A stretch of 64,000 bases of DNA from Sclerotinia nivalis. Lineage: Eukaryota; Ascomycota; Leotiomycetes; Helotiales; Sclerotiniaceae. Position 1 is the first letter of the stretch. Each line of letters begins with the position of its first letter. A program made the translations under genes and the position numbers. This document shows, in pieces, positions 25,584 through 30,143 of the stretch. The stretch spans positions 558,001 through 622,000 of the forward strand of contig JAPEIS010000016.1 in the NCBI GenBank assembly GCA_029531795.1. Direction: 5' to 3'. The notes beneath the pieces are model-generated. The model was not told where the DNA came from. It saw only the letters and a program-made list of their open reading frames with translations, and did not search any database.

Positions 25584-26286
25584 ATGACGACGCCCTTCAA
25601 GACTACGATGAAGCACACCATGAAGCGGCAGCAAAGAAAGTTAACAACTACTCAGTACCGCGTGTCGAAACCAGCAACTAAGTGCAGAAGCGCCAATGAC
25701 AGCATGCAGTCACTTACCTACCATACAGCTCCATTCATCAGTGAAATTGAGGGTGGTATACAACATGTTGCAATGAATGCGAGACAAATCGGGTGGGTCG
25801 AGGCTCCTCGGCGCTCTGTCAATTCATATATATTGTTCCGTAGTAAGTTTTCTGATCAACAACTATTTGCAGAAGACTAATATCTATTTAGCCTTCTATA
25901 TGATTTTGACTGTGCTTGGAAATATTCCGCAAAAGTACAAGTCTGCCATCCTCAGTGTCTTATGGGGACGCGATCCTTTTCATGCCAAATGGTCTATCCT
26001 TGCTCGCGCTTATACCCTTATGAGAGATACCAATGTCAGAAGAACCGTCTCTGAATACCTTGCTCTTGTATGTCCTTATATTGGTATCCTTGCTGTTAAT
26101 GATTACCTTACCGATCTCAATTGGACATTCGAAACAAATGAAGAAGGGACTGTCTGTCTTCGTCAAACTTCTCCATCAGATATCCGTTCATTTCCAGCAC
26201 ACATCGCTAGAACTACCTTGACAGATTTGGACGTCATCACTTTCTGTGGCTCCCAAGGTTATAGTCGAGGAGAGAAGAAGTTGTAA
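25584..26286 (+). CDS. MAT1-1-1: mating-type alpha-box protein MAT1-1-1, 3'-truncated by the inversion
   Basis: Two exons (25584-25842 and 25892-26286) give 217 aa. The alpha box lies around residues 55-205: FISEIEGGIQHVAMNAR, VNSYILFRTFY, KYKSAILSVLWGRDPFHAKW and VCPYIGILAVNDYLTDLNW. This is the DNA-binding domain of the MAT1-1 master regulator. Residue 210 (GSQGY) is the last one shared with the other half of the gene. Then the frame leaves the 245-bp repeat, reads seven foreign codons (SRGEKKL) and stops at 26284-26286. The remaining 142 codons lie on the opposite strand at 29898-29421. The alpha box is kept, so the truncated protein may still bind DNA. Its last 28 bases overlap the 3' end of MAT1-2-1 on the other strand. 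Confidence 0.9.
26018..26262 (+). repeat. left arm of the MAT inverted repeat (245 bp)
   Basis: Identical, by hand reading, to the reverse complement of 29899-30143. It lies inside the coding region of MAT1-1-1 (codons about 129-210). The match starts at TTATGAGAGATACC and stops after CAAGGTTAT; the next bases on each side differ between the arms. It serves as the substrate for inversion of the MAT core. Confidence 0.97.
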
Positions 26287-27464
26287 AGATCCTGTTGTTG
26301 GATCATTTGCCAAGATTCTGTTGATGTAAAGTTTATACCTATTGATTCATCATCATATGTAAGTCTGGAGTTTTCGGATTGAAATTGTTGTTCTGTTATA
26401 TTAGAGTGATTTATATGAATATTGAGTCCAAATGTATTTAGATCAGAATTATCAATAAAATTGTTGTTTGCAGTAGGAAAGCCGATGGAGGAGGTGGTGG
26501 TATTGATGTTGTGGGATAATTGATTAGTGGTTGGTTTGGTGAGCGTCTTCTTGGATGCACGTCGCTTCTTCTCACTTGGCTTCCTGGGAGCGTACTTGTA
26601 GGTAGGATAAGCCTTCTTGTGAGCTTCCTTTAACAGATCGGCACGAATCTTGTACTTCAAACGCCGCTCTGGAGTTTCTGCAGCCCACATGCCGGCGATA
26701 ATCGAAGCTAGAAAAAAAACTTAGAAGATTGAAGTGAAGCATATAACAAATGGGAAACTTACAAATCTCGTTATTGGTGATACCTGGATAGGCTTTCTTG
26801 ATGGGAAGATGGTTATCAGCACGATAAAGAATCCACTCATTAGCGGGACGTGGGATCTTTGGCTTGAGAGCAGCAGGCAGGGACGGTGATAGATGCTTTT
26901 TCCCTGAGGCAGAGCAGGGAGCCACCCCAACATTCGTCGGAAGAATTGTGCAATTTTCATCCCATGAGCCGTTCATCATCCTTCGATGCTCGACATTAAG
27001 AGGCTCCAGACACAAATTGGTGAAGCCTGCGACGGCCAACATCTGTTTGTCCTCAAACTCATCCAATGGGGCAAGAAATATTCTGCTGACATAGGCGTCT
27101 CTGACGAAAACACCTTTCCGATCAGTGTGTTGCCTGTGATTGCATGTTAGACGAGACCGTAATACAGAGCAGACGTTACATACTCATAAAAATGAAGCAG
27201 AATTTGACGTTCAGGTGTGCCAATACCAAGGTATTCGGAATCTTGCAGCTCACACCATGCGTTGATGTCAAGTGCGTTATACAGATCCAATTCGTTGAAG
27301 AAAGTGCGCATCGCATCATAAATCTCCTTCGACAATCCAGGAATGCCATAAGCTTCGACAGGTGTGATGTCGACTGCAGGATAAGGAACATCTGCGAGAG
27401 GAGTTTCAAGAATAGTACCGCGGTGCGGTACCCATTTCCCAAGTCTGAGGGTGGACAGAGACAT
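26259..27464 (-). CDS. MAT1-2-1: mating-type HMG-box protein MAT1-2-1
   Basis: Three exons (27464-27184, 27133-26763, 26707-26259) total 1101 nt, 366 aa. The HMG box runs from KIPRPANEWILYRADNH through KAYPGITNNEISSIIAGMW to KYAPRKPSEKKRR, about residues 178-255. An intron lies at the conserved Ser codon of the box. It is the MAT1-2 master regulator, a sequence-specific DNA binder acting with MAT1-1-1 in sexual development. The start at 27464 (MSLSTLRLGKW) is preferred over an upstream ATG at 27533 because it begins the conserved-looking region. The C-terminal 90 residues are Asn/Gln-rich. The TAA stop uses the last bases of the inverted repeat. The part of exon 3 that is duplicated near APN2 is strikingly A:T-enriched. 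Confidence 0.93.
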
Positions 27465-27965
27465 CCTCGAAATGTAAATGCGACAATGTTTTAGAAAAGT
27501 CTCAATGGAATGCTTCAAAAATAAAAGAAACAAGTAAAGTAACTCCAGCTTATTATGATTATCAAGGAAGATTGAGCAGCTGTACAGGTCAAAAAATTGT
27601 GGTTGTCGAGATATGAAGGTTGTGGGAGGAAGGATATTTTTTCATCGAGGAAAAAGTTTAAATAAAATATTATTGGCGGGATCATACCGCTTGAAAAACC
27701 ACTAAGCGAAATTCAAATCAGAATCTGGAGTATTCTTTGTTGGAAGGTGAATGCAAATAAAGGTAAGAATAAAAATGAAGAACTTGGTCTATTAATATGA
27801 ACACCTAGAACACAGAAATGATCAAAGCACCATGTTAGCTGCTCATAATAGTATAACTATGTAGACTCCATCAAATGAAGCTGCAAGTCTTCCATTGATA
27901 TATATGAAGATCTCATATATACTTACGTACATTCATACACGTTATCGTAATTGCAAGGCGCAGGA

Positions 27966-28890
27966 ATGCAACCACAAGCAAGAGCCAATGCCGGTGCCGA
28001 GACATCGACGGGACGGTCTCAGATTAACGCAACGTATGTTCTCAACCACATGAATGACTTTTCCCGAGATTTCAAGCGGCCGGTTTCCAAGACGACAACT
28101 CCACAACCATTTTTAGGAATTGCTCCTGTGGTATATGACGTTGATTACACGGTGATACACGACTCTCCCCAATGGATAGGAGATGAAAGGCAACTTCGGA
28201 AACCCAAAGTGACCACAGAGCAACGTCAGTCACAGAGGGAGCTATCAAACGTCGTTCGACACACGAATAACCTTGCGAATAGCTTTATGAAACTCGAAAC
28301 GGGGCTTCTTAACTTGCGTTTCGACAAACAAGGGTCAGCACCATTGATCAAGCAATTAGCTGCAGGTCAAAGAATTGCGTTGCGAATTTATCTACAGAAG
28401 TAAGTAGAAAAATCTTCGTCCCTAAACATTATTGATAAAAAGTTCCAGCGAAATCACAAAACAAGCAGCCGATTTGGGGCTGGTGAAACTCGGTGAATGC
28501 GAAACTTTGGCTATAAGAGATGTGGTGAAGAGCATGGTTGACCGTCGCCGAACAATTACTCAAGCAGAGGGCAATGTATTTGCAGACGAGATATTTGAGA
28601 ACGAGTTCGAATTCGACAATGGGGATGAATCCGGGGAGGCACATATAGAGCCATATTTAAAGAGAAGTGAAGAGATACGCAACGAGAGTGAGTTCCTCCA
28701 CATATGTGAGTGTCAGATTAAGCTAATTCAATGCAGTCTCCGATCTGATTTGGAATCTACAATTCGATCGTACTTTCGCGAGAACTATGTCCCATCTCCT
28801 CCCTTTGAATTACGACTCTTGGAAAGAGAAGATTATAACACCGACAAGTATACGAAAGAGAAGGCGTATGAGGAGAATAAAACGAGTTGA
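27966..28890 (+). CDS. MAT1-2-4: mating-type protein MAT1-2-4
   Basis: Exon 1 is 27966-28399. The intron ends at either 28442 or 28448 (two usable AGs six bases apart), then exon 2 runs to the stop at 28890, about 291-293 aa. The identity comes from position in the core next to MAT1-2-1, as in Sclerotinia; a homologous gene was later given a different number in Botrytis. No known domain is seen. The middle is predicted helical (ELSNVVRHTNNLANSFMKLE), and the C-terminal third is acidic. A GTGAGT...CAG pair inside exon 2 (about 28688-28736, 49 nt) could be a further intron. Splicing it shifts the frame into a basic-rich tail ending at 29002. I prefer the unspliced reading because its tail looks more like ordinary protein. 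Confidence 0.72.
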
Positions 28891-29420
28891 AAGTGCAGGT
28901 GGACAGCACTCATACATCATCTACGATCGATACTTATTACACATTTCATTGAGCATTGAGCATGTTTCCCGAAAGAGGAGAGAAAATGTTGAAGCAGAGT
29001 AATAATTTTTATTCCATCATGAGATCTTTTTAGTGATTCTAGCAAGTCTTTGAATGAGAAAGAAGAAATTTTTATGCACCAGAACCTTTTGAAATATACA
29101 CAAGACCGACAAGCTTGATGCTTAGCAGGTCATTTTTAAGTATCTATCCATCCAAATTATGATCAAAATGTAATGAGAACTGTGTACTGAGAATAAAAAC
29201 GAGGAAGCCTGATGTGTAATTGATGTACGAACCATTACCATCAAGATCTTGGGGAATTGGTGGATAAATGTCCCAGGTTTTCCATCTAAAAACATGCTGC
29301 GTCAATGAGTATATACATCCATCCAACTCCTAGTTTTTGCTCTAAATCCATCCTGGGGAGTGTTTATCGTGGGAACGGGACAATGCCTCGGTGTCACGAA
29401 AGGTTCGGGAATGTAGTGGA
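28891..29420. other. MAT1-2-4 to MAT1-1-1 3'-part spacer
   Basis: 530 bp, AT-rich, no supported gene. It should hold the MAT1-2-4 3' end and the natural 3' UTR and terminator of MAT1-1-1, now detached from its promoter. Confidence 0.5.
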
Positions 29421-29898
29421 CTATGAATCGGTGAAGTCTAAAACAATTAGTATGGCACAATCAAATGGGTGAACAGGTTGACTTACCTGATGGTGGAGAG
29501 ACATCGCCAGGAACGTAGAGGCTGTTTGCATCACCAAGAGAGGTGGGGTTGAATTGATCGAATTGGGTTTCAAGTCCACTGAGGTCAATAGACCCGTTGT
29601 CCTGACTCCAGTAGCCAGCCATCATACCAGTGGACCAAGGAGGTGGTGGTGGCAGTGTGCCAGTGGGCAGTGGTGCACCTGGTGGTGGTGCAGATAGAGT
29701 GTAAGTAAGAGGGTGGTCGAAAGCTGGCTTGGGAGGTGGAGCAACAATGATACCTTTAGGCATCTCCCAGGCACCATATGCATTCTGAGTGGAAGCAATG
29801 TGTTGTGTGACAGGGAGAGTACCTTGGATAGCCATGTTAGCATTTGGATGCATACGGTTCCAGCCCTGAACGATGCTGGCAGCAGTTGCGACTGGCAA
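29421..29898 (-). pseudogene. MAT1-1-1: orphan 3' part of MAT1-1-1
   Basis: Continues codon 211 of MAT1-1-1 exactly at the repeat edge: 29898-29487, then a 49-nt intron (29486-29438, GTAAGT to TTTTAG), then 29437-29421 ending DFTDS and TAG. It encodes 142 residues that are Pro-rich in the middle (PLPTGTLPPPPPWSTG). In this orientation it has no alpha-box half upstream, only the 89-residue stretch of the right repeat arm. It would be rejoined in frame if the core flipped back; the 210 shared codons plus 142 give a 352-aa protein. Confidence 0.9.
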
Positions 29899-30143
29899 AT
29901 AACCTTGGGAGCCACAGAAAGTGATGACGTCCAAATCTGTCAAGGTAGTTCTAGCGATGTGTGCTGGAAATGAACGGATATCTGATGGAGAAGTTTGACG
30001 AAGACAGACAGTCCCTTCTTCATTTGTTTCGAATGTCCAATTGAGATCGGTAAGGTAATCATTAACAGCAAGGATACCAATATAAGGACATACAAGAGCA
30101 AGGTATTCAGAGACGGTTCTTCTGACATTGGTATCTCTCATAA
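29899..30143 (-). repeat. right arm of the MAT inverted repeat (245 bp)
   Basis: Exact inverted copy of 26018-26262. The outer edge (30143/30144) lacks MAT1-1-1 sequence beyond the repeat, so this arm is the copied one and the left arm sits in the real 5' half of the gene. Confidence 0.97.

What the first reader, a model, noticed from the sequence alone, without database searches (positions are those of the whole stretch)
26018..30143. Perfect 245-bp inverted repeats bracket a 3636-bp MAT core in the flipped state
The two arms read identical and the core contains MAT1-2-1, MAT1-2-4 and the C-terminal third of MAT1-1-1. The alpha-box gene is cut exactly at an arm edge, so the sequenced nucleus is in the inverted state. 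This agrees with the Inv+/Inv- alternation I recall for Sclerotinia sclerotiorum and marks a programmed or recurrent rearrangement. The assembly must come from an Inv+ nucleus or a mixed culture.
Basis: partly seen in the sequence, partly recalled or inferred. Interest (0 to 1): 0.9.

Follow-up and report, generated by a model that had tools for sequence, protein, structure and literature searches.

The report
Invertible mating-type segment in Sclerotinia nivalis
The snow-mould fungus Sclerotinia nivalis carries, in its mating-type locus, the same kind of segment between two identical inverted repeats that is known to flip in its relative Sclerotinia sclerotiorum, so this looks like one more species with a known switch rather than a new kind of switch.

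Summary
Confirmed. Two 245-bp arms (26018-26262, 29899-30143) are exact reverse complements around a 3,636-bp core holding MAT1-2-1, MAT1-2-4 and the 3' two fifths of MAT1-1-1, between APN2 and SLA2. The species is Sclerotinia nivalis: the window's chimeric 217-aa MAT1-1-1 is identical to S. nivalis OCU04_012570, on a contig of the same length. Gene content, arm position and Inv+ state match the published S. sclerotiorum inversion region (250-bp arms, PMC3574095); S. minor and Ciboria shiraiana are reported to have it too. New member of a known kind; two searches found no held paper on the S. nivalis MAT locus. The arms differ from S. sclerotiorum by at least 5 bases but not from each other, so they were probably homogenised after the species split: indirect evidence of continuing recombination. 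Inversion itself is not shown here; the assembly holds one orientation. Beyond the finding: a MAT1-2-1 3' fragment (23353-23625) lies before MAT1-1-5, and the matching end of the MAT1-2-1 gene carries one-sided C:G-to-T:A change. It resembles the fragments bordering Botrytis idiomorphs and bears on how the fused locus arose.

The parts
20593..22293 (+). APN2 (part of the ORF), left border gene of the MAT locus
   Evidence: Pfam Exo_endo_phos 2.4e-11 and GRF zinc finger 6.6e-06; ORF
23353..23625 (-). MAT1-2-1 3' fragment, no HMG box, 85% identical to the end of the MAT1-2-1 gene, direct repeat of 26266-26538
   Evidence: no Pfam match for the ORF 23346-23720
23907..25209 (+). MAT1-1-5, three introns
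   Evidence: gene length 1303 and introns 281-329, 878-941, 969-1027, the values printed for S. sclerotiorum in PMC3574095 Table 1; no homology search was run for it
25584..26286 (+). MAT1-1-1 5' part with alpha box, intron 25843-25891, then 7 foreign codons and a stop: 217-aa chimeric ORF
   Evidence: identical to P0041, S. nivalis OCU04_012570
26018..26262 (+). left 245-bp arm (MAT1-1-1 codons 130-210)
26263..29898 (.). 3,636-bp core
26259..27464 (-). MAT1-2-1 (HMG box), introns 27134-27183 and 26708-26762, 366 aa; stop codon TAA lies inside the left arm (overlap 4 bases)
27966..28890 (+). MAT1-2-4 (called MAT1-2-10 in PMC10569646), intron 28400-28448; a second intron 28692-28736 is possible
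29421..30143 (-). MAT1-1-1 3' part together with the right arm; intron 29438-29486
29899..30143 (-). right 245-bp arm
31067..33517 (-). SLA2 (part of the ORF), right border gene of the MAT locus
   Evidence: Pfam I/LWEQ 3.1e-50 and ANTH 2.3e-12

Best explanation
This is the MAT inversion region of Sclerotinia nivalis, homologous to that of S. sclerotiorum, caught in the Inv+ orientation. The arms are two copies of the middle of MAT1-1-1. Recombination between them inside one chromosome turns the core round: one state gives a whole MAT1-1-1 (about 352 aa), the other a 217-aa chimera plus a detached 3' part, with MAT1-2-1 and MAT1-2-4 turned but whole in both. Shown here: anatomy, species, homology, single locus, arm homogenisation. 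Inferred from S. sclerotiorum: inversion by non-allelic homologous recombination around the sexual cycle, giving 1:1 progeny that may act as partners in a self-fertile fungus.
For: Perfect arms. Each arm is the same stretch of MAT1-1-1, and re-inversion in silico gives one continuous MAT1-1-1 frame, 91% identical over 94% of the query to S. sclerotiorum MAT1-1-1 P0037. The tail that S. sclerotiorum MAT1-2-1 (P0001) has beyond the S. nivalis stop is encoded by the arm in another frame, so the arm lies at the same place in both species. Homogenisation: at least 5 base differences from S. sclerotiorum inside the arm (2 residues in the MAT1-1-1 frame, 3 in the MAT1-2-1 frame) against 0 between the arms; a Poisson chance of 0.007 if the arms had evolved apart since the split. 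PMC3574095: inversion in each sexual generation, identical motifs in 36 isolates examined.
Against: One orientation only is in the assembly, and the one S. nivalis MAT1-1-1 protein returned is the chimera. No reads, progeny or expression data. Identical arms also follow from gene conversion without inversion. The comparison with S. sclerotiorum rests on proteins, not on its DNA, and on two different records.
Confidence: 0.85

Rival explanations
1. A frozen inversion: S. nivalis inherited the arms but now stays in the Inv+ state, MAT1-1-1 working (or not) as the 217-aa chimera; gene conversion alone keeps the arms identical.
For: One orientation in the assembly; the chimera keeps practically the whole Pfam alpha box (40-175 of 194); conversion would give the same identity.
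Against: The detached 3' part still reads as an open frame in register with the 5' part, with a splice-consistent last intron, which is not expected of a part cut off for long; conversion tracts and crossovers come from the same recombination.
Confidence: 0.12
2. Assembly artefact: one arm copied or the core misplaced by the assembler.
For: Perfect 245-bp identity is the kind of thing an assembler could create; raw reads were not seen.
Against: A contig of 2.0 Mb in a 31-contig assembly; four different flanks; same architecture published in S. sclerotiorum from PCR and Southern blots (PMC3574095).
Confidence: 0.03

Closest known systems
MAT inversion region of Sclerotinia sclerotiorum (Inv+/Inv-), PMC3574095
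   Same: Same genes, same borders, arms from the middle of MAT1-1-1, 3.6-kb inversion region, Inv+ truncation of MAT1-1-1, distal arm at the 3' end of MAT1-2-1
   Different: Arms 245 instead of 250 bp; MAT1-2-1 stops 4 bases inside the arm (366 aa) instead of 28 residues further (394 aa in P0001); APN2 to MAT1-1-5 spacing 1,613 bp here
MAT inversion of Sclerotinia minor (256-bp arms, as reported in PMC4891775) and Ciboria shiraiana (250 bp, PMC10569646)
   Same: Inverted MAT1-1-1 repeats around MAT1-2 genes
   Different: Arm length; their DNA was not compared here
Sclerotinia trifoliorum direct-repeat deletion (146 bp), PMC4891775
   Same: Repeat drawn from the same stretch of MAT1-1-1; same gene order as Inv+
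   Different: There the repeats are direct and the MAT1-2 genes are deleted, one way only
Botrytis cinerea idiomorphs with border fragments, PMC3158057
   Same: A MAT1-2-1 fragment and a MAT1-1-1 fragment border the idiomorphs; the MAT1-1-1 part fused to MAT1-2-4 in P0046 matches from 12 codons inside the arm of this window
   Different: B. cinerea is heterothallic with one idiomorph per strain

Membership tests
Sclerotinia-type MAT inversion region | Identical inverted repeats made of part of MAT1-1-1 at both ends of the region | tested here: met
Sclerotinia-type MAT inversion region | About 3.6 kb between, with MAT1-2-1 and MAT1-2-4, in an APN2-SLA2 locus with MAT1-1-5 | tested here: met
   MAT1-1-5 by position, length and intron positions only
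Sclerotinia-type MAT inversion region | Turning the core gives an intact MAT1-1-1 | tested here: met
   in silico
Sclerotinia-type MAT inversion region | Single MAT locus in the genome | tested here: met
   one 114-bp, 79% MAT1-2-4-like stretch elsewhere
Sclerotinia-type MAT inversion region | Both orientations occur, 1:1 in progeny of either parent | not testable with these tools
   no reads, isolates or progeny; assembly shows one orientation
Sclerotinia-type MAT inversion region | Expression differs between states (intron 1 of MAT1-1-1 unspliced in Inv+, fewer MAT1-2-1 transcripts) | not testable with these tools
   no RNA data; the intron has normal splice sites here
Direct-repeat deletion (S. 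trifoliorum type) | Direct MAT1-1-1 repeats around the MAT1-2 genes | tested here: not met
   arms are inverted

The most novel reading that the evidence does not exclude
The S. nivalis locus keeps both repeat pairs from which the MAT arrangements of the family can be derived: the inverted MAT1-1-1 arms (245 bp, kept identical) and a direct MAT1-2-1 3' pair (273 bp, 2,913 bp apart in this orientation) around MAT1-1-5 and the MAT1-1-1 5' part. Recombination across the second pair would delete the MAT1-1 genes and leave a Botrytis MAT1-2-like idiomorph with its MAT1-1-1 border fragment; deletion across arms in direct orientation, as in S. trifoliorum, leaves a MAT1-1-like idiomorph with its MAT1-2-1 border fragment. 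One-sided C:G-to-T:A decay of the MAT1-2-1 copy, largely shared with S. sclerotiorum, would have shut the deletion route and left only the reversible switch.
Probability: 0.3. Interest if true: 0.55.

Novelty: new member of a known kind. Interest (0 to 1): 0.35.

Why it matters
It adds S. nivalis to the few fungi with a reversible MAT switch built on a repeat of a MAT gene itself, and its arms show sequence homogenisation since the split from S. sclerotiorum, which argues that the repeats have gone on recombining. The MAT1-2-1 fragment before MAT1-1-5 makes it testable whether the fused locus came from a crossover between Botrytis-like idiomorphs that already bore fragments of each other's genes.

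Tried and rejected
(protein search with the right arm) ran into an error because I gave a frame with two stops; I went on with the MAT1-2-1 and MAT1-1-1 proteins. The last protein search, with the MAT1-2-1 fragment ORF, had 1 candidate and no match, so I cannot say whether other Sclerotinia species carry the fragment. My first gene-model script found no MAT1-2-4 model because the intron ranges were wrong; one search found it. S. sclerotiorum as the species was rejected: MAT1-2-1 is 96% and MAT1-1-1 91% identical as proteins, while PMC3574095 gives 98.6-99.8% nucleotide similarity within S. sclerotiorum for these genes. Classical RIP with CpA preference was considered for the decayed MAT1-2-1 end and is not clearly supported: changed C by next base are CpA 13 of 54, CpC 12 of 34, CpT 10 of 32, CpG 1 of 5, and the other copy is not decayed. 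The search for similarity beyond the arm edges gave one 13-nt match in opposite orientation, taken as chance. The paper search for a 50.3-Mb Sclerotinia genome gave one unrelated paper. Papers: PMC3574095 abstract, two of three parts of Results, first part of Discussion, section 19 and passages; PMC4891775 abstract, first part of Results, Discussion; PMC10569646 section 16 and passages; PMC3158057, PMC12655907, PMC12856484, PMC12844470, PMC11767943 passages only; the S. minor paper and the SnTB1 genome paper not seen.

Full report
Observation. The window holds two arms, 26018-26262 and 29899-30143, that are perfect reverse complements of 245 nt with 3,636 nt between. The genome search finds the arm at these two places and the core once in full. 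The alpha-box family is found at these two arms only, in the window's own assembly. With a 40-nt minimum the window has one other inverted pair, 45 nt at 84% and 44 kb apart.

Organism. The chimeric ORF that starts at 25584 and ends at 26286 gives 217 residues identical to P0041, named by its source hypothetical protein OCU04_012570 of Sclerotinia nivalis. Its contig is 2,006,938 bp long; the contig C16 in which the window lies is 2,006,938 bp. The assembly has 50.3 Mb in 31 contigs; a 2025 paper gives about 48 Mb for S. nivalis and about 38 Mb for S. sclerotiorum (PMC12655907, passages). So the public annotation already holds the truncated MAT1-1-1, unnamed.

Anatomy. From APN2 to SLA2 the order is: a MAT1-2-1 3' fragment, MAT1-1-5, MAT1-1-1 5' part with the left arm, MAT1-2-1 (minus strand), MAT1-2-4, MAT1-1-1 3' part with the right arm (minus strand). 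Intron positions of MAT1-1-5 and the first intron of MAT1-1-1 agree with those printed for S. sclerotiorum. The cut in MAT1-1-1 falls exactly at the inner arm edge; seven foreign codons and a stop follow. The re-inverted reading is one frame; with both introns removed it gives 352 residues, of which the arm encodes 130-210 and the core part the last 142. The alpha box is almost wholly in the 5' part and arm: profile positions 40-175 of 194 in the chimera, 40-179 in the re-inverted reading. In S. sclerotiorum Inv+ strains the box was reported truncated because intron 1 stays unspliced (PMC3574095); whether that holds here is unknown.

Same as in S. sclerotiorum. PMC3574095 describes a 3.6-kb inversion between two 250-bp motifs of MAT1-1-1, the distal one at the 3' end of MAT1-2-1, with the inversion in half of the progeny of either parent. 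Here S. sclerotiorum MAT1-2-1 (P0001) is 28 residues longer than the S. nivalis one, and that tail is read from the arm in another frame: the arm sits at the same place. PMC4891775 reports 256-bp repeats in S. minor and direct 146-bp repeats with deletion in S. trifoliorum. PMC10569646 adds Ciboria shiraiana and does not mention S. nivalis. Searches for S. nivalis with mating (2 papers) and nivalis with MAT1-2-1 (2 papers) gave no description of its MAT locus; the passages seen of two of these four papers do not describe one, the other two I saw as listings.

Does it still recombine? Against S. sclerotiorum the arm shows 2 residue changes in 81 codons of the MAT1-1-1 frame and 3 in 28 codons of the MAT1-2-1 frame, at separate places: at least 5 base differences. 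Between the two arms of S. nivalis there are none. If both arms predate the split and had evolved apart, about as many differences would be expected between them; zero has a Poisson chance of 0.007. That supports exchange between arms after the split. It does not separate crossover (inversion) from conversion, and rests on proteins of two S. sclerotiorum records.

The MAT1-2-1 fragment. 23353-23625 matches 26266-26538 over 273 nt at 231 of 273. Of 42 differences, 36 are C:G in the fragment and T:A in the gene, 2 are the opposite transition, 4 are transversions; 36 of 38 transitions in one direction has P 5e-9. G+C is 34% in the gene copy, 47% in the fragment, 47% in the upstream part of the gene. 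The gene stays open, with 21 changed and 16 silent codons. At the 21 residues that differ, S. borealis has the fragment's residue at 11 and the gene's at 3, B. globosa 12 and 3, M. fructicola 8 and 4, M. vaccinii-corymbosi 7 and 3, the rest neither; S. sclerotiorum has the gene's at 15 and the fragment's at 4. So the fragment keeps the older state and the gene's end decayed mostly before S. sclerotiorum and S. nivalis parted. It resembles RIP in direction, but without clear CpA preference and on one copy only. Both copies, and no others, were found in the assembly.

Origin. PMC3158057 reports a MAT1-2-1 fragment bordering the B. cinerea MAT1-1 idiomorph and a MAT1-1-1 fragment bordering MAT1-2. 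A B. cinerea protein, P0046, joins MAT1-2-4 to a MAT1-1-1 end that matches from 12 codons inside this window's arm onward. PMC4891775 proposed a single crossover between Botrytis-like idiomorphs for the fused Sclerotinia locus. The fragment found here is what the left side of such a crossover would bring if the MAT1-1 parent already bore a MAT1-2-1 fragment. The reverse, Botrytis idiomorphs by deletion from a fused locus, is possible too. This is inference; I could not read the S. sclerotiorum or Botrytis DNA.

Verdict. A real, well-formed and known kind of structure in a species where I found no description of it. Confidence 0.85 that it is a working inversion region of the S. sclerotiorum type; the flip itself remains to be seen.

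Noticed in passing
23353-23625 and 26266-26538: MAT1-2-1 3' fragment before MAT1-1-5 and one-sided C:G-to-T:A change in the end of the MAT1-2-1 gene (36 of 42 differences).
   Followed up: partly
L004 4012-4123 (G000 contig C3:2320511-2320622): A 114-bp stretch, 79% identical to the start of MAT1-2-4 (window 27943-28056), on another contig; looks like a relic.
   Followed up: partly
39777-52224: Several families of dispersed direct repeats (44-222 nt copies, 62-93% identical) right of the MAT locus; nature not examined.
   Followed up: no
14047-14329: Overlapping tandem-like repeats of 66-106 nt.
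   Followed up: no
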